DNA of 22,817 bases, from the IMG/VR virus record IMGVR_UViG_3300000063_000006, positions 1-22,817 of that record; one strand, written 5' to 3'. The DNA comes from a virus. The notes under the pieces are model-generated. The model was not told the origin of the DNA. It searched no databases and was given only the letters and a program-made list of their open reading frames with translations. Below are positions 2,985 through 22,557 of this stretch, in pieces. The position numbers and the translations under genes were made by a program. Numbering within the stretch: position 1 is the stretch's first letter; each line of letters begins with the position of its first letter.

Positions 2985-3572
2985 TTACTCCAGGTTGATT
3001 GGGTCTTGAAGGTTGAGAGTTATTCGAGTGGCGGAATTCGCAGAGCCGATCAGGACGTCATAGCCGTCAACCGGCGAAACCTGGGTGAGCGCGCCATTGG
3101 CACCCAGCCAGACCGGCCCGGGCGTCCAAGACCATCCGGCGTCATCGATGGCGCCGCTTCGCTGGACATTACCCACCTGGCCAAGCGCGCCAGCGGTGAG
3201 CGTGATGCCCAGCAGGAGGTCGATGTGTTCGTCATCCCGGTAGTCGAGCGCGAACACCTGGTTGTCGAGTTCGTATACAGCGCGTAGCGCGCTCAGGGTT
3301 TCCCCGAAGGTTCGTTGAACAGCCGATCCGCCGGCGGGACCAGGGATACCGACGCCTTGCGGCCCGCGCTGGCCCGCGAGAATGACCGCCGCGCCCCGCT
3401 CGCTCGTGATGTGGACGCAATAGCCCGCAGGCTTCGCAATGGCGACGCGCAGGCCTTTGGCAATGAATGTGGCCCGCTGCTGCTCACGGATGAGCAAGGT
3501 CACCACAGCGCCCGAGGTCTTGGCGACGAACGCCTCTCCTCGTTGCGACTGGGTGACCAGGCTGCTCTTCAC
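2985..3572 (-). CDS. Fibre-module protein with a collagen-like stretch, 195 aa
   Basis: This starts with GTG in a GTGA overlap with the upstream stop. An N-terminal beta-rich domain (1-65) is followed by a short collagen-like segment at 67-82 (GQRGPQG...PGPAGG), with Gly at 67, 70, 73, 78 and 81 and one break. The C-terminal domain includes YELDNQVFALDY and VWLGANGALTQVSP, and ends in a repeated pattern of hydrophobic strands (TRITLNLQDPINLE). This last part resembles the C-terminal domains of many phage tail-fibre adaptor proteins. Collagen-like stretches in phage fibres commonly hold trimers together. A role as a fibre segment or adaptor is likely. Confidence 0.8.
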   Translation of the reverse strand: MKSSLVTQSQRGEAFVAKTSGAVVTLLIREQQRATFIAKGLRVAIAKPAGYCVHITSERGAAVILAGQRGPQGVGIPGPAGGSAVQRTFGETLSALRAVYELDNQVFALDYRDDEHIDLLLGITLTAGALGQVGNVQRSGAIDDAGWSWTPGPVWLGANGALTQVSPVDGYDVLIGSANSATRITLNLQDPINLE

Positions 3573-4183
3573 TGCGTGACCTCATCGGCAACGGTTACAG
3601 CGCTGATGGCCACGATCGCGTAAACCTCACCCGTGGGGGTGACGGCTTCAAAGTCGTAAACGCCCTTCCGCCAGTCGATGGCCTGAGTCGCAGCCGCTGA
3701 CAGCTTCGGAATGAACGCGCTGAGTGCGGTATCGATCTGGATGGTGCCTGCAGGATTGGTGGAGGGGTCAGAATCGAGCTTGAGCAGAACCGACCCGCCT
3801 ACCCGCTCCTTGATCCACATACGCGCGGAATAGCCGGTCAAGTTGACTGGCTTGCTGAACACCACCAGGCCACCGGTGGAATACGCCTTCCAGCAAGTCG
3901 CATTGACGGTGTTCAGTTCGATGGTGTCAGCGTCGACGATCTTGGCGAAATAGTAAGGCTCGTCGCCGTCTGGATCGTTGTTGAGCTCTTCCGGGTACTT
4001 CAAACACTCGACGCGGATTGGCCAGCCATCAGGGATGGCGTGCGCAGTGATTGTCAGGCGGACAGGCGCAACACTGGTCATCGCCTCGATCGGCAAATAG
4101 ACCAGTTCGTCTTCAGCGTAGCGGTACGCAAACTCGAAGGTTTTACCCTTGACGATGGTGATGTCGACGACGGGGGCGCCCAT
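3569..4183 (-). CDS. First gene of the fibre operon, tail adaptor-like protein, 204 aa
   Basis: Residues 5-30 form a short strand-rich start (VVDITIVKGKTFEFAYRY). Residues about 40-110 contain a beta domain with PYYFAKIVDADTIELNTVNA followed by KAYSTGGLVVF. That pattern recurs in phage tail proteins and is sometimes matched to the FCCH-type fold of E1 enzymes; I offer this from memory of the pattern. The C-terminal part (115-204) is a second strand-rich domain (YSARMWIKERVGGSVLLKL, then DWRKGVYDFEAV). The gene follows a copy of the recurring intergenic motif by about 30 bases and has AGGAG before its ATG, so it is probably the first gene of a transcription unit running through the fibre and chaperone genes. 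Confidence 0.8.
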   Translation of the reverse strand: MGAPVVDITIVKGKTFEFAYRYAEDELVYLPIEAMTSVAPVRLTITAHAIPDGWPIRVECLKYPEELNNDPDGDEPYYFAKIVDADTIELNTVNATCWKAYSTGGLVVFSKPVNLTGYSARMWIKERVGGSVLLKLDSDPSTNPAGTIQIDTALSAFIPKLSAAATQAIDWRKGVYDFEAVTPTGEVYAIVAISAVTVADEVTQ

Positions 4184-4193
4184 GGAAATCTCC

Positions 4194-4224
4194 TGCGATT
4201 TCCGGTGAGCGTATGTGACTGGAT
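4194..4224 (-). repeat. Imperfect direct repeat, left copy
   Basis: TGCGATT, an 11-base spacer containing GAGC, then TATGTGACTGGAT. The right copy is at 4730-4759 with a 10-base spacer. Both include a copy of the intergenic motif and both lie just before minus-strand starts. They flank a plus-strand gene and an opposing short gene, so they may mark duplication or insertion by recombination. Confidence 0.5.
4212..4224 (-). promoter_or_regulatory. Recurring intergenic motif, copy 1 (putative phage promoter)
   Basis: Read on the minus strand this is ATCCAGTCACATA. It lies about 29 bases before the ATG of the fibre operon (4183). Three other copies occur, all in intergenic gaps and in the same orientation. 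At the position of the GTTGAC block in copies 3 and 4, this copy has only CTTCTC. Confidence 0.6.
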
Positions 4225-4337
4225 GGCTATGAGAAGGGCTGTCTGCACGTCCAGCGTGGACAAATGAACATATGGCCTATCCGCCATCACTCGACTAGCT
4301 TCGGCGGTCCGAAACATCACCAATCAAGGGGGACGTC

Positions 4338-4592
4338 ATGGCGGAGGTTACGCGTGAAGAATACCAAGTATTGGTCGATCTCTTGCTTCGTACCCAAGCA
4401 GAGGTGACAGGAATCAGATCGGCGCTTCATGCCATCATTGGCGCTTACCCAGACAAACAGGAACTAGCATTCAGGCTTTCGGACCAGCTTCTCCGTATGG
4501 AGGCTGTGATGGGGTCCAGTGCTGCACCGGATACGGCAATTGAGAGCACAACCTCCCTGCTTCGCGAATTGATTCAAATTGCGCAGAGATAA
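4338..4592 (+). CDS. Small helical protein on the opposite strand, 84 aa
   Basis: One of only two clear plus-strand genes in the window. It has a strong ribosome site (AAGGGGG, 6 bases before ATG). The sequence is helical throughout (EEYQVLVDLLLRTQAEVTGI, then KQELAFRLSDQLLRMEAVMG), with no membrane segment and no cysteines. I do not recognise a family, though small helical proteins of this type are common in Pseudomonas genomes and prophages. Its last 122 bases overlap the 3' part of an oppositely directed short gene (4471-4713). No convincing sigma-70 promoter was found in the 113 bases before it. Strand, position between two motif copies and size fit a moron-type accessory gene. Confidence 0.7.
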   Translation: MAEVTREEYQVLVDLLLRTQAEVTGIRSALHAIIGAYPDKQELAFRLSDQLLRMEAVMGSSAAPDTAIESTTSLLRELIQIAQR

Positions 4593-4713
4593 GGCTCATA
4601 CGCAATGGCCTGGCGGCGTCCTGTGCGCCGCGCCGCCGGTCAAGCTCTGCCATCACAAGATCAGCGACTGCATTGATAAACGATTCGTCGTCTAAAAGTG
4701 TTTGAATGTCCAT
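4471..4713 (-). CDS. Small protein antisense to its neighbour's 3' end, 80 aa
   Basis: The ATG at 4713 is preceded by AAAGGGG and, about 34 bases upstream, by copy 2 of the intergenic motif. The first 40 residues look like a genuine phage protein: an acidic helix (MDIQTLLDDESFINAVADLV) then a basic end (ELDRRRGAQ). The last part (from about residue 41) is encoded antisense to the plus-strand gene at 4338-4592 and is rich in Pro, Ser and Gln, less protein-like. So either the two genes truly overlap tail to tail by 122 bases, or only one is real. The RBS and motif favour expression of this one too. Confidence 0.5.
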   Translation of the reverse strand: MDIQTLLDDESFINAVADLVMAELDRRRGAQDAARPLRMSLISAQFESIREAGRLCSQLPYPVQHWTPSQPPYGEAGPKA

Positions 4714-4729
4714 TACAGGCCCCTTTCGT

Positions 4730-4759
4730 TGCGATTGGGGCGAGCATATGTGACTGGAT
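4730..4759 (-). repeat. Imperfect direct repeat, right copy
   Basis: Partner of 4194-4224: TGCGATT, a 10-base spacer with GAGC, then TATGTGACTGGAT. The two copies are 536 bases apart. Confidence 0.5.
4747..4759 (-). promoter_or_regulatory. Recurring intergenic motif, copy 2 (putative phage promoter)
   Basis: Minus strand ATCCAGTCACATA, identical over 13 bases to copy 1. It lies upstream of the short minus-strand gene starting at 4713. The block corresponding to GTTGAC in copies 3 and 4 reads ATTGCC here. The plus-strand secreted-protein gene starts 22 bases to the right, so the gap is a divergent promoter region. Confidence 0.6.
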
Positions 4760-4780
4760 TTGTGAGGCAATGGAGTGTTT

Positions 4781-5182
4781 ATGAAGCGGTTTAGATTTTC
4801 TCTTTTGGTTCTGCTGATGCCGATGCTCTCGGCTAATGCAGAGTGCTGGACGGTGACGGAACTGCAAGGGAAGAGCGCCAGCGCCGATGGGCGATATGCG
4901 TTCATTGACGATGGTTTTTCGAAACCTATTTTCGCAGTGACACTTGATCAGCAGGCGCCATCAGTCAGCATTGTCGGTTCGCCAGGTGGTTATGATGCGG
5001 GGAGCTTCGCGTCCATCAATAGCTATAGCCTTGTTTTCTTCGCGCCCGGTGAGCCGTCCAATGTCGAGACGTGGGCAATCGATCGATCCCAAAACAAAGC
5101 AATCATGACTCAACTTAGGACCGGGCAACTATTTCAGAAAGCAGCAGCGTTTGTGGGAAACGCCAGGCTTGGATGTCAGTAA
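4781..5182 (+). CDS. Secreted (periplasmic) protein, probable moron, 133 aa
   Basis: A typical signal peptide is visible: basic start (MKRFRF), hydrophobic core (SLLVLLMPML), then ANA before E21, the expected signal peptidase I site. The mature protein begins ECW and ends GCQ, so C22 and C132 could join its two ends by a disulphide. The rest is a beta-rich domain (FIDDGFSKPIFAVTL, SYSLVFFAPGE). It resembles small exported proteins of unknown function that I associate with Pseudomonas chromosomes. GTG at 4775 is an alternative start, but GGAG lies 6 bases before the ATG at 4781, and starting there gives a cleaner signal peptide. It is on the opposite strand to the virion genes and abuts the convergent gene at 5183 with no gap. 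Role unknown; cell-envelope modification or superinfection exclusion are guesses. Confidence 0.8.
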   Translation: MKRFRFSLLVLLMPMLSANAECWTVTELQGKSASADGRYAFIDDGFSKPIFAVTLDQQAPSVSIVGSPGGYDAGSFASINSYSLVFFAPGEPSNVETWAIDRSQNKAIMTQLRTGQLFQKAAAFVGNARLGCQ

Positions 5183-5401
5183 TCAATCAGTGTGTGCAAA
5201 GCCTTCGATGATCCAAACGGAGATTACGCCAAGGAGGTAAACGGCGACGACAGGTAGTATGCCGATCTGCAGCGTCACCATCGCCCCACCAGGTTCCTTA
5301 AGCCAAAATGCTGCAATGATTAGGATCCAGAGAGCCGAGACTATCATCCATAGTCGACGGAATCCTTTCTTGTAAGCGAAACTGATCTTCACTTTCGGCA
5401 T
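5183..5401 (-). CDS. Small two-helix inner-membrane protein, 72 aa
   Basis: A basic N-terminus (MPKVKISFAYKKGFRR) precedes two hydrophobic helices, about residues 17-34 and 42-66, joined by a short loop (KEPGGAM). The charge pattern puts both ends in the cytoplasm. The size and topology would fit a superinfection-exclusion or holin-like protein, but there is no diagnostic motif and its distance from the other small left-end genes argues against a standard lysis cassette. AGGAAGG lies 5 bases before the ATG, within a hairpin described at 5400-5429. The stop codons of this gene and the convergent secreted-protein gene are adjacent. It is probably part of the accessory cassette. Confidence 0.7.
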   Translation of the reverse strand: MPKVKISFAYKKGFRRLWMIVSALWILIIAAFWLKEPGGAMVTLQIGILPVVAVYLLGVISVWIIEGFAHTD

Positions 5402-5437: not shown

Positions 5438-7861
5438 TTACGGGGTGACGATGGTAGCCGGTAGCTCCATCGGCCCAGCTTTGCTTTTTGGTGCAGATGG
5501 CTCGGTCAAATAAACTAGAGGGCCAACAGTGGCAATTCTTGCTCGCGCTGAAGATCCAAGGCTTTTCTCCCAACTCCGATAAGCCTGGGTGCGGACCAAT
5601 TGCTTCTCGCGTGCGAGGACATTCGCCTTCAACTGCCCCCCAGAAGAGGAGTAGGCCTTGATCATGTTCATCAGTTGAGGCGACGCAAGCAGTTCACTGG
5701 CGCTTTCCTGAATGGGTGTTTTCTGTTTGCTTAACGCAGATGCGATAACCCCGACAGCGCCAACCCCAGGTAAGCCAACACTGCTGGTGATGCCTTCGGC
5801 CGCGGCTGCAGGTCTGGCGATATCCCAGATACGACTGAGCAGACCACCTTCTGCCGCATAGTCTTTGAGCACGCCAAGAGAAACACCAGTCTTGACTACC
5901 TCCGCCGAAGCACTTTTCATGGCTTTGGCGACCGTGTAAATCTTGTCCAGGCGATCGGTAGCTTCCGCTGGTAGATATTTGGTAAGACGGGCACGAGCCG
6001 CATTATTTCGATTCAAGTCTCCGTACCAATCGACAAAGCCGGAGGCGCTGAGTTGTTGCTGAGATCCTGACTTAGCCGTGAAGGCGTCATTTAGTGCCGT
6101 AACGATCGCAGCCTGGCGGTCTTTTTCTGGAATGTGCTTGATAATGTTGTCGAAGTTTTTAAAGTTACCCTGCCCAAGTTGCTTTACTGATGAGCCGAGA
6201 CTGGTAGCGATTGAGCCGGATAGGTTGCGGCCGAGCACCGACTGCAGCCCACTTTCAAGTTCTTTTCGCTGCGCGACAATCGACTTTGCGCCCTGATAAA
6301 TAACCCCCAACTCGGGGCTCATCGAGTTAACCAAGGCTTCCTGGTCTTTGGTGAGGGCACCATATAGAGCGTCTCTAATTCCAGACTGCATATCCCGAAA
6401 TGGCCCAGCATTTTCATATCCCTGCCCAACCTGTTGGCGAACCAAATCGAGAGCGGCATAAGTCGGGTTTTCCGTGCGAGTTATGAACTCCCCAGGAGAC
6501 AGTGCCCCGGCCGGTTCGGTAATCGTTTTTGGCGACAAAACATTCAGCGCCTGGCTTTCACGGGAGCTCAGAAGGGATTCGCCGCCGAGGTCCGCAACTT
6601 TCTGGTTGAGGTAAGCCGTAGTGTTCTCCACAGGCGAGCGGGTGATGCTGGGTATCTGCTCATTTATGTAGCTGTAAAGCTTATCCGCCTGACTTCCAAG
6701 CCTGTCGATTGTGTCCTTGCCATTTCGCGCGAACTCATCGGAAAAGGCCGCCTTGTCGGTATTTCCACCGAAGTCATTGATGAAGTCATCGGCTTTCTGC
6801 GCGACCTTTAGGTAGGTGGCCTTATTCTTTTCGTTCAGCGCACTACCAGGAATTGCAGCCAGCGCGCCTTGGATATTACGGAACGTTGGATTCTGAGAAA
6901 GCTGAGCGGGAGTGAAATCATTGACGTCTAAACCAAGATCATTTATCGCCGAGATTACCTTAGGGTCAGGGTCCACTACGCCAGCCAAATTACCGAGCGC
7001 CACCTCGCCATTTTTTCCTGAGACGTTAACGGCATCCACGATTGACTTGGCGGTTCCTCGCAAAGCGGGATCTGACGAATCAACTGGCGCGGCCCCCGGG
7101 GGCTGGGGTGTTTTTCCCTGTGTATCCGCGACAAAACTTCCGCCCGGACTGGTTGGCCCGACAGCCGGGTTCACCTCTTGATCAACGCCCTCTGCCAGTC
7201 TTGGGCCTGGGCTTGTGGACGGTAGGAATCGATCAGGCACAAGCTTCCGTGCCGCCCCAGCAACCCCTGAGATCACAAGAGGGGCGGCGGCGCCAACAGT
7301 CGCGCCTACCAAAGCGCCCTCCCCAGCGCCCTGGGCTCGATCGGAAAAGTCACCTTCCGCTGAGCCGAATCCGTAAGCTCCTCCCTGAGCAGTACCTAAA
7401 GCCGCGCCCTTTGCAGCAGTTCCTGCAAGTGTTGCCTTGCCGGCAGTACCAACCGCCGAACCAGCCAGTGAGCCCCCACCCGTTGCCAATACCGGAGCTA
7501 TCGCCCCTACAATACCGCCGGCAATATTTGCTACTGGATGCTGATCTTGCGCCGACTTCAAAAATGCACGTTGGTCGACCAAGTTTTTGTCGTATCGATC
7601 TGAGATGCTGTCGCCCGCGTTGCCTGTACCAAACACAGGTTGCGCAACTGCATCGAGACCCGCGAATGCTTCGTCCTTCAGTCCAAATAGTAGTGCATCC
7701 TCCGCGCCGCTTTGCGCGGCCTGTAGAGTGCCAACCTCTGGCTCCGTCTTAAGCTGGTCAGGCTTGGCAGGCTTCACAGATGAAATAGAGTTCCAGTCTT
7801 GCCCGGCTGACTGAGACTGGACTTGAGGTTTTACAGCAGAAATCGAATCCCAGTCGTCCAT
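5438..7861 (-). CDS. Probable internal/ejection protein, 807 aa
   Basis: Two near-identical short repeats open the protein: DWDSISAVKP (3-12) and DWNSISSVKP (22-31). Residues 111-206 are a long Gly/Ala-rich hydrophobic region with many GxxxG-like spacings (GGIVGAIAP, GGGSLAGSAVG, GATVGAAAPLVISG), suited to inserting in membranes. The rest is mainly helical (for example 345-400 and about 600-670). This plan, a membrane-active Gly zipper and long helical body, is typical of proteins packed in the head of podoviruses and ejected with the DNA. No transglycosylase or peptidase motif was seen. It starts in a TAATG overlap with the 642-residue protein, so the two are probably co-expressed from the motif upstream of that gene. 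Confidence 0.75.
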   Translation of the reverse strand: MDDWDSISAVKPQVQSQSAGQDWNSISSVKPAKPDQLKTEPEVGTLQAAQSGAEDALLFGLKDEAFAGLDAVAQPVFGTGNAGDSISDRYDKNLVDQRAFLKSAQDQHPVANIAGGIVGAIAPVLATGGGSLAGSAVGTAGKATLAGTAAKGAALGTAQGGAYGFGSAEGDFSDRAQGAGEGALVGATVGAAAPLVISGVAGAARKLVPDRFLPSTSPGPRLAEGVDQEVNPAVGPTSPGGSFVADTQGKTPQPPGAAPVDSSDPALRGTAKSIVDAVNVSGKNGEVALGNLAGVVDPDPKVISAINDLGLDVNDFTPAQLSQNPTFRNIQGALAAIPGSALNEKNKATYLKVAQKADDFINDFGGNTDKAAFSDEFARNGKDTIDRLGSQADKLYSYINEQIPSITRSPVENTTAYLNQKVADLGGESLLSSRESQALNVLSPKTITEPAGALSPGEFITRTENPTYAALDLVRQQVGQGYENAGPFRDMQSGIRDALYGALTKDQEALVNSMSPELGVIYQGAKSIVAQRKELESGLQSVLGRNLSGSIATSLGSSVKQLGQGNFKNFDNIIKHIPEKDRQAAIVTALNDAFTAKSGSQQQLSASGFVDWYGDLNRNNAARARLTKYLPAEATDRLDKIYTVAKAMKSASAEVVKTGVSLGVLKDYAAEGGLLSRIWDIARPAAAAEGITSSVGLPGVGAVGVIASALSKQKTPIQESASELLASPQLMNMIKAYSSSGGQLKANVLAREKQLVRTQAYRSWEKSLGSSARARIATVGPLVYLTEPSAPKSKAGPMELPATIVTP

Positions 7862-9789: not shown

Positions 9790-9826
9790 TGTAGAGTGCT
9801 CCGCTAATCAGCTGTGCACCCAAGGC

Positions 9827-9851
9827 TATGTGACTAAATCAGCCGGTCAAC
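9827..9851 (-). promoter_or_regulatory. Recurring intergenic motif, copy 3 (putative phage promoter)
   Basis: Minus strand GTTGAC, 5 bases, then GATTTAGTCACATA. The core is at 9827-9839. It lies in a 79-base gap about 37 bases before the ATG of the ejection-protein gene. Copy 4 matches it across the whole 25 bases at the same spacing. The stretch ATTTAG...CACATAG recalls the SP6 promoter (ATTTAGGTGACACTATAG). Confidence 0.65.
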
Positions 9852-9868
9852 GATGGTCGACCGACCTG

Positions 9869-21530: not shown

Positions 21531-21564
21531 TTCCTTGTGCGGCGATGGCCTACGAACTCAAACT

Positions 21565-21589
21565 TATGTGACTGAATCGGGCCGTCAAC
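21565..21589 (-). promoter_or_regulatory. Recurring intergenic motif, copy 4 (putative phage promoter)
   Basis: Minus strand GTTGAC, 5 bases, then GATTCAGTCACATA (core 21565-21577). It lies directly after the scaffold gene stop and about 234 bases before the major capsid ATG. The 25-base layout is identical to copy 3. A promoter here would separate high capsid expression from the upstream head genes. Confidence 0.65.
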
Positions 21590-22557
21590 TAGATAACGTC
21601 ACCGGCCAGGCGAGCTTCGTCCTCTGGCGACAGTTCTTTCATCTGCTTCGGGGTCATCTTGGAAACGTCGAGCTTCGCAGCACGCGCACCGAGGCCCTCA
21701 GGCTTGGCCGGGATCTGCGCGTCACGTTTCAGCGCTTTCTCAAGGTCAGGTTTCGGAATTTCCAATGCCTTGTCGCCCGGCTCAACAACGGCTGCAGGGG
21801 CATAACGTGGACCGATCTTCGCGACCGCAGTACTCAGAGCCTCACCGATGCTTTTGCCCTTACCGCTGTAGAAGTTCGTCAGGGCCAATACTTCGTCGAT
21901 AGCGTCCTGATTCTTGGTCTCGCTGTTCGAGTCCAGAAATGGAAACGCCACGTAGGCCTTTGCCACGGCGAGGTCACGCTCCAGCTCGGCACGCTTCTGC
22001 TCGTCTTGTTGGCGATTGGCGGCATAACGTCGATCAGCTACTACTTCAGCCTCTGCAATGGCCTCGGCGCGCTCATTGGTGCGGATCTCGGCACGGATTG
22101 CGCGGGCCTTGGTCGTGTCGCCATCCAGGATGGCAGCGCTATACAGCTCCTCCGCCGCGTCGTAGTCGTACGCTTCAACCTTTGGCGCCTCCTTGGTCGG
22201 AGCAGCCGCAGTGCCGGCTTTGCCATTGGCGCGGGCTAACTCTTCTTCAAGCTCGAGCACGCGCTTGCGGTTGGCCTTGGCCTCTTCGTTCACTTCATTG
22301 AAGCGTGAGTGAGGAACGGTCTTCGGCTTGTCGTCACCTGCGATGGCGGCCAGGGTCTCTGGATCAATGTCAGTCTTGGCCGGTGCGGCATCACCTGGTG
22401 GGGTGGTAGCGACAGTGTTGAGAGTGTCGGCTCCTGACGCATCATCATCGTCTTCCTGTCCGTCGAAGGTCTCGCCGGCGTCGATCGCTTCCTGCGCCAG
22501 GCGCGCTTCCAACTCTTCCGGTGTTTCCTGTACTGCGTCTGCTGCTTTGGTACCCAT
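21589..22557 (-). CDS. Putative capsid scaffolding protein, 322 aa
   Basis: The protein is Ala/Glu/Lys-rich and lacks cysteine. An acidic, low-complexity N-terminus (1-75) is followed by a coiled coil with NEVNEEAKANRKRVLELEEE (about 88-110) and long helices (RAIRAEIRTNERAEAIAEAE, then NRQQDEQKRAELERDLA). The end is basic then acidic (KRDAQIPAKPEGLGARAAKL). This is the usual form of phage scaffolding proteins, with the C-terminus thought to contact the capsid protein. The position just before the major capsid gene agrees. AGGGG lies 7-8 bases before the ATG. No protease domain is visible. The assignment is by composition and position. Confidence 0.75.
   Translation of the reverse strand: MGTKAADAVQETPEELEARLAQEAIDAGETFDGQEDDDDASGADTLNTVATTPPGDAAPAKTDIDPETLAAIAGDDKPKTVPHSRFNEVNEEAKANRKRVLELEEELARANGKAGTAAAPTKEAPKVEAYDYDAAEELYSAAILDGDTTKARAIRAEIRTNERAEAIAEAEVVADRRYAANRQQDEQKRAELERDLAVAKAYVAFPFLDSNSETKNQDAIDEVLALTNFYSGKGKSIGEALSTAVAKIGPRYAPAAVVEPGDKALEIPKPDLEKALKRDAQIPAKPEGLGARAAKLDVSKMTPKQMKELSPEDEARLAGDVI

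What the first reader, a model, noticed from the sequence alone, without database searches (positions are those of the whole stretch)
4338..5401. Two-strand accessory cluster inside a one-strand structural genome
Two plus-strand genes (a helical protein and a secreted protein) and two minus-strand genes (a short soluble protein and a two-helix membrane protein) sit between the ejection-protein and fibre operons. An exported protein with possible end-to-end disulphide and a small inner-membrane protein could form an envelope-acting system, for example exclusion of other phages or alteration of host surface. None was recognised.
Basis: partly seen in the sequence, partly recalled or inferred. 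Interest (0 to 1): 0.65.

Follow-up and report, generated by a model that had tools for sequence, protein, structure and literature searches.

The report
Phage exclusion-gene slot with Hex-like protein
Between the DNA-injection and tail-fibre genes of a probable Pseudomonas prophage lies a swappable gene slot holding an exported relative of phage 434's Hex protein, which is credited with keeping rival phages out; its anatomy suggests that Hex acts in the cell envelope and not, as published, inside the cell.

Summary
The four ORFs are real but are not one accessory system. The two-helix membrane protein (5183-5401) is a core gene: it follows the ejection gene in all 16 related contigs that have that gene. 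The short soluble protein (4471-4713) carries the same promoter-like element as the fibre, ejection and capsid operons, so both minus-strand genes look late. The two plus-strand genes are accessory. The secreted one (4781-5182) belongs to PHROG 2651, the family of phage 434 Hex and Sf6 gene 38; Hex is the lysogen-expressed protein credited with excluding superinfecting P22. It keeps the family's signal peptide and its only two cysteines, at both ends of the mature chain, and is predicted to be a small beta-barrel. It sits convergent to the ejection operon, in the slot that P22 uses for sieA and that P22-like phage Emek fills with its own Hex relative. In relatives the interval holds repressors, antirepressors or toxin genes: the P22 'ant moron'. 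Best reading: an accessory slot of a temperate, probably Pseudomonas, podophage carrying a periplasmic superinfection-exclusion gene. Exclusion by this protein is inferred from homology, not shown. The family's anatomy fits poorly with the published cytoplasmic (RecA/repressor) mechanism of Hex, which makes that mechanism testable.

The parts
4781..5182 (+). Hex-like gene: exported 133-aa protein of PHROG 2651 (434 Hex / Sf6 gene 38 family)
   Evidence: PHROG 2651 E 7e-13; tblastn to 434, Sf6, HK446, HK633, Sf101 about 30% over 98%; signal peptide and Cys22/Cys132 conserved; all-beta model pLDDT 86
4338..4592 (+). P1: 84-aa helical protein, accessory, function unknown
   Evidence: 64% identity to L006 protein next to a CI-like repressor gene; no family match
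4471..4713 (-). P2: 80-aa short soluble protein, probably late-expressed; its 3' end overlaps P1 by 122 bp
   Evidence: relatives in L006 (45%) and L013 (4607-4777), all three preceded by the late element
5183..5401 (-). P4: 72-aa two-helix membrane protein, last gene of the ejection operon
   Evidence: directly after the ejection gene in 16 of 16 contigs with that gene; alignment of 15
4202..4246 (-). late promoter-like element before the fibre operon
   Evidence: weight matrix from other loci, score 36.5; shuffle maximum 11.7
4737..4781 (-). late promoter-like element before P2; its upstream edge meets the Hex-like start codon
   Evidence: score 30.3; exact 18-mer repeat
9817..9861 (-). late promoter-like element before the ejection operon
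   Evidence: score 20.4
21555..21599 (-). late promoter-like element before the capsid gene
   Evidence: score 22.9
4248..4275 (+). conserved leader of P1 with palindrome GTCCAGCGTGGAC, candidate control site
   Evidence: 28 nt identical in the leader of the P1 relative of L006; not found in other viral contigs
5438..7861 (-). ejection (DNA transfer) protein gene flanking the slot
   Evidence: tblastn to 'DNA transfer protein'/'transglycosylase' of Sf101, C130_2, Skarpretter and others; PHROG 6704 E 5e-98
3569..4183 (-). first gene of the fibre operon flanking the slot
   Evidence: PHROG 1084 E 2e-16; 26 related loci

Best explanation
The interval between the ejection operon (ending with P4) and the fibre operon is an accessory ('moron') slot of a temperate, probably Pseudomonas, podophage, equivalent in position and content to the P22 immI/'ant moron' between genes 16 and 9. 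Here it carries P1 and a Hex-family gene on the strand opposite to the late genes, so they can be expressed from the prophage while late genes are silent. The Hex-like protein is exported through its signal peptide, folds in the periplasm as a small beta-barrel probably stapled by a disulphide between first and last strand, and interferes there with DNA entry of related superinfecting phages, most likely by disturbing the trans-periplasmic conduit built by their ejection proteins. Shown here: homology, signal peptide and cysteine conservation, barrel prediction, slot position, variable slot content, late elements on the minus-strand genes. Inferred: prophage expression, disulphide, exclusion, and the conduit as target.
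For: Family membership: PHROG 2651 E 7e-13, about 30% identity over 98% to 434 Hex, Sf6 gp38 and others. Hex excludes superinfecting P22 from lambda-imm434 lysogens, hex- does not (PMC3564112). Signal peptide and two cysteines kept in all 20 aligned members. Same slot in P22-like phage Emek, convergent to the DNA-transfer gene and before mnt-arc-ant; P22 keeps sieA there. Slot content varies between repressors, antirepressors and toxins in relatives, while flanks and P4 are constant; 11 of 16 relatives have an integrase. SieA of P22 blocks the ejection-protein conduit (PMC10883804). [quoted passage not shown]
Against: No exclusion data for this protein or any Pseudomonas member. The only biochemical study of Hex favours a cytoplasmic role (RecA-stimulated repressor cleavage, with a recA-dependent induction phenotype). 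No sigma-70 promoter was recognised before the Hex-like gene or P1, so prophage expression is unproven. The window is a fragment without integrase or repressor of its own; that it is temperate rests on relatives. Fold matches are generic.
Confidence: 0.6

Rival explanations
1. Repressor protection: as published for 434 Hex, the protein works in the cytoplasm and shields a phage repressor from RecA-stimulated autocleavage, so that it stabilises lysogeny.
For: hex deletion raises spontaneous induction about 30-fold in recA+ but not recA- hosts, and a 6-kDa fragment blocks cleavage of 434 and P22 repressors in vitro (PMC3564112). In lambdoid phages the gene is coupled to cI.
Against: Signal peptide and terminal cysteines conserved in the whole family. 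No repressor gene beside it in the window, L024 or Emek; Emek has Mnt/Arc-type genes there. The active fragment begins exactly at the predicted signal-peptidase site and lacks the last four strands and the second cysteine.
Confidence: 0.15
2. Lysogenic conversion other than phage exclusion: a periplasmic barrel that gives the host some benefit, for example ligand binding, inhibition of an envelope enzyme or stress protection.
For: Barrel of lipocalin/FABP or OmpX type; many prophage genes of this kind serve the host. One phage record calls the homologue PagP, without support from my searches.
Against: Hex is named for P22 exclusion; repeated placement in the sieA slot next to ejection genes.
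Confidence: 0.17
3. Late or virion role: the four genes are small structural or lysis-associated genes of the late programme.
For: P4 and P2 are on the late strand with late elements.
Against: The Hex-like gene and P1 are on the opposite strand, have no late element, and are absent from most relatives with the same structural genes.
Confidence: 0.04
4. One reading: exported protein plus P4 act together.
For: The Hex-like and P4 genes are adjacent and convergent in the window, L013 and L024.
Against: P4 is in 16 of 16 ejection-gene contigs, and only two of those records have a Hex match. Lambdoid Hex stands next to cI, not next to a P4 gene.
Confidence: 0.04

Closest known systems
Phage 434 Hex ('repressor protection protein'; PHROG 2651; Sf6 gene 38, HK446, HK633, Sf101)
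   Same: About 30% identity over the full length, signal peptide, same two cysteines, same predicted barrel
   Different: Lambdoid members start at the cI stop codon and are read from PRM; the window gene stands alone beside the ejection operon, without repressor gene
Salmonella phage Emek gp14 (P22-like)
   Same: Same family and same slot: convergent to the DNA-transfer gene, in the interval before the tailspike
   Different: Emek also has mnt, arc and ant in the slot; the window has P1 and P2 instead. The Emek gene is annotated only as similar to Sf6 gene 38
P22 immI / 'ant moron' (mnt-arc-ant, sieA) between genes 16 and 9
   Same: Same position between ejection and receptor-binding genes; variable, largely non-structural content; relatives of the window carry Arc-like and antirepressor genes there
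   Different: The window slot itself has no arc, mnt or ant; the virion genes belong to another podophage lineage
P22 SieA
   Same: Gene in the same slot, opposite strand, convergent to the last ejection gene; superinfection exclusion of P22-type phages is the proposed role
   Different: SieA is a three-helix inner-membrane protein without signal sequence; the window protein is an exported barrel

Membership tests
434 Hex family (PHROG 2651) | Sequence match over the whole mature chain | tested here: met
   PHROG 2651 E 7e-13, residues 19-134 on 2-116 of 117; tblastn 98% coverage
434 Hex family (PHROG 2651) | Signal peptide and two cysteines at the ends of the mature chain | tested here: met
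   Cys22 and Cys132 invariant in 20 aligned members
434 Hex family (PHROG 2651) | Overlap with and cotranscription with cI (lambdoid members) | tested here: not met
   No repressor gene adjacent in the window; also not in Emek. A trait of the lambdoid branch, not of the whole family
434 Hex family (PHROG 2651) | Exclusion of superinfecting P22 | not testable with these tools
   Reported for 434 Hex (PMC3564112); needs an experiment for this member
P22-type ant moron / immI slot | Variable non-structural genes between ejection and receptor-binding genes | tested here: met
   Interval 380-4017 bp with changing content in 16 related contigs
P22-type ant moron / immI slot | Antirepressor and Arc/Mnt-like genes present | tested here: not met
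   None in the window; Arc-like with pRha, KilA-N or Bro-N in L013, L015, L020
P22-type ant moron / immI slot | Expressed from the prophage rather than from the late message | not testable with these tools
   Strand and lack of late element agree; RNA data needed
SieA family | Three-helix inner-membrane protein without signal sequence | tested here: not met
   Hex-like protein: N-terminal signal only and all-beta model

The most novel reading that the evidence does not exclude
The Hex family is a class of periplasmic, disulphide-stapled barrels that block the trans-periplasmic DNA conduit of incoming phages, a counterpart to inner-membrane SieA that has moved between two niches (the cI operon and the ejection-gene slot) and between enterobacterial and Pseudomonas phages; the published cytoplasmic RecA/repressor mechanism would then be a side effect of an unexported fragment.
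Probability: 0.4. Interest if true: 0.7.

Novelty: new member of a known kind. Interest (0 to 1): 0.55.

Why it matters
Hex exclusion is a classic phenotype whose published mechanism sits badly with the protein's own anatomy. The window adds a distant family member with no repressor gene beside it, so export and exclusion can be tested free of repressor stability. It also shows that the P22 'ant moron' slot exists in temperate podophages of another lineage, a place to look for uncatalogued exclusion and toxin genes, and it gives a late-promoter-like element for these phages.

Tried and rejected
Single envelope system of four genes: rejected because P4 is core and P2 has a late-type element. 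The repeated 18-mer as plus-strand promoter for P1 and the Hex-like gene: rejected, because in relatives it stands before minus-strand-equivalent late operons. P1 as a BMFP membrane-fusion protein: Pfam E 0.066, far below the cut-off. PADLOC: no match for the four window proteins. Megablast of the window against phage records: no match. Relatives of the Hex-like protein in viral contigs from the single sequence: none; the alignment found 72 loci. P1 relatives in GTDB genomes: none. PDB by sequence: no relative. Fold searches: generic beta-barrels only, no function, and absence of a better match shows nothing. The 25-mer of the P1 leader is found only in the L006 contig. Hex relatives in 398 Pseudomonas genomes: only the P. 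veronii remnant. P4 has no PHROG or Pfam family. P1 and P2 were not folded: too few relatives for a useful model.

Full report
WHAT IS THERE. The window is a whole 22,817-bp IMG/VR record holding head, tail, ejection and fibre genes on the minus strand. Between the ejection and fibre operons lie four ORFs, two on each strand. ORF length alone would not carry weight: shuffles of this stretch give a longest ATG ORF of median 80 aa. Conservation does: each protein has relatives in other phages. I call them P1 (4338-4592 +), P2 (4471-4713 -), the Hex-like gene (4781-5182 +) and P4 (5183-5401 -). The interval from the Hex-like gene to the fibre gene is 52-53% G+C against 58% for the window.

THE MINUS-STRAND PAIR LOOKS LATE. 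A search with the first fibre-operon protein gave 26 related loci. In all 16 distinct contigs that also have a recognisable ejection gene, P4 stands directly after it, while the interval from P4 to the fibre gene changes. P4 is therefore a constant member of the ejection operon (15 aligned members). The 18-mer repeated at 4207-4224 and 4742-4759 (none expected by chance) is, read on the minus strand, a promoter-like element. It stands about 25 nt before the fibre gene in every P4-bearing relative, before the first ejection gene in many, and before the P2 relatives of L006 and L013. A weight matrix built only from other loci finds four strong sites in the window, all on the minus strand: before the fibre operon, P2, the ejection operon and the capsid gene (scores 36.5, 30.3, 20.4, 22.9; next best 4.5; best of 20 shuffles 11.7). 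Its skeleton is TTGnnn-16-TAnnnT with a conserved CAGYCACA in the spacer. That it is a late promoter is inferred from position only.

THE PLUS-STRAND PAIR IS ACCESSORY. P1 has one relative among viral contigs (L006, 64%), where it follows a CI-like repressor gene. The Hex-like gene is in two of the 16 records (L013, L024) and as a remnant in P. veronii, the only hit among 398 Pseudomonas genomes. The P. veronii remnant lies beside the same putative toxin-antitoxin pair as in L024, and P4-bearing prophages occur in Pseudomonas genomes, which is why I call the host probably Pseudomonas. Neither plus-strand gene has a late element in front. Each begins beside a late element that points the other way: the Hex-like start codon coincides with the upstream edge of the P2 element, and the conserved P1 leader (4248-4275) abuts the fibre element.

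THE SLOT. In relatives the P4-fibre interval is 380 to 4017 bp. It holds Arc-like repressors, CI-like proteins and pRha, KilA-N, Bro-N or ORF6N proteins of the antirepressor type (L013, L015, L020, L022), toxins YhaV (L016; L017 has the same ORFs) and YafO (L014), or one small ORF. 11 of 16 records carry a tyrosine integrase. [quoted passage not shown] PMC2629481). P22 keeps sieA there, convergent to gene 16.

THE HEX-LIKE PROTEIN. It matches PHROG 2651 (E = 7e-13) and, at about 30% identity over 98% of its length, the gene after cI in 434, Sf6 (gp38), HK446, HK633 and Sf101. The 434 gene is hex (PMC3564112), named for exclusion of superinfecting P22 by lambda-imm434 lysogens. In the lambdoid loci the start codon overlaps the cI stop (L111, a remnant, excepted). 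In Salmonella phage Emek the relative sits convergent to the DNA-transfer gene, in the interval with mnt-arc-ant before the tailspike: the sieA position, and the position seen here. All 20 aligned members have a signal peptide and the same two cysteines, at mature position 2 and at the C-terminus (rare 434-type variants with a changed cysteine exist). AlphaFold2 gives an all-beta nine-strand model, mean pLDDT 86. Solved structures match only as generic barrels (OmpX, lipocalin and FABP types; Z at most 8.5). I could not measure the cysteine distance in the model.

MECHANISM. The 2013 study proposes that Hex shields repressors from RecA-stimulated cleavage, based on a recA-dependent induction phenotype and on a 6-kDa fragment, E43-N103 of a 158-aa reading. 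By my alignment, E43 is the first residue after the predicted signal-peptidase site, and N103 lies before the last four strands and the second cysteine. So the fragment that was tested was an unexported part of what looks like a periplasmic barrel (inference). The toxicity of full-length Hex reported there would fit an exported protein that is overproduced. SieA blocks injection of P22-like phages, and escape mutations map to the ejection proteins that build the trans-periplasmic conduit (PMC10883804). A periplasmic Hex acting on the same conduit explains P22 exclusion, the signal peptide, the gene's place beside ejection genes and its independence from cI. It does not explain the recA-dependent induction effect. 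I put exclusion in the envelope at 0.6.

VERDICT. As a kind this is known (Hex family, ant moron). New are a Pseudomonas-type member without a repressor neighbour, and the argument that Hex acts outside the cytoplasm.

Noticed in passing
4202-4246, 4737-4781, 9817-9861, 21555-21599 (minus strand): Promoter-like element TTGnnn-16-TAnnnT with CAGYCACA in the spacer before the fibre, P2, ejection and capsid units; shared by all related contigs and not, to my knowledge, described.
   Followed up: partly
4248-4275 (+) and L006 5918-5945: 28 nt before P1, with palindrome GTCCAGCGTGGAC, identical in two phages whose P1 proteins are only 64% identical: a candidate operator or RNA leader.
   Followed up: partly
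4471-4592: P1 and P2 overlap 3' to 3' by 122 bp on opposite strands; the overlap is also present, shorter, in L006.
   Followed up: no
L024 6144-6901 and L040 4960-5717: A DUF4258-like plus HTH pair, probably a toxin-antitoxin module, next to the Hex relative in a viral contig and in a P. veronii genome.
   Followed up: partly
L013 4782-6893, L015 3566-6461, L020 3061-5799: Slots with Arc-like or CI-like repressors next to pRha, KilA-N or Bro-N proteins look like second immunity regions of the P22 immI type in podophages related to the window.
   Followed up: partly
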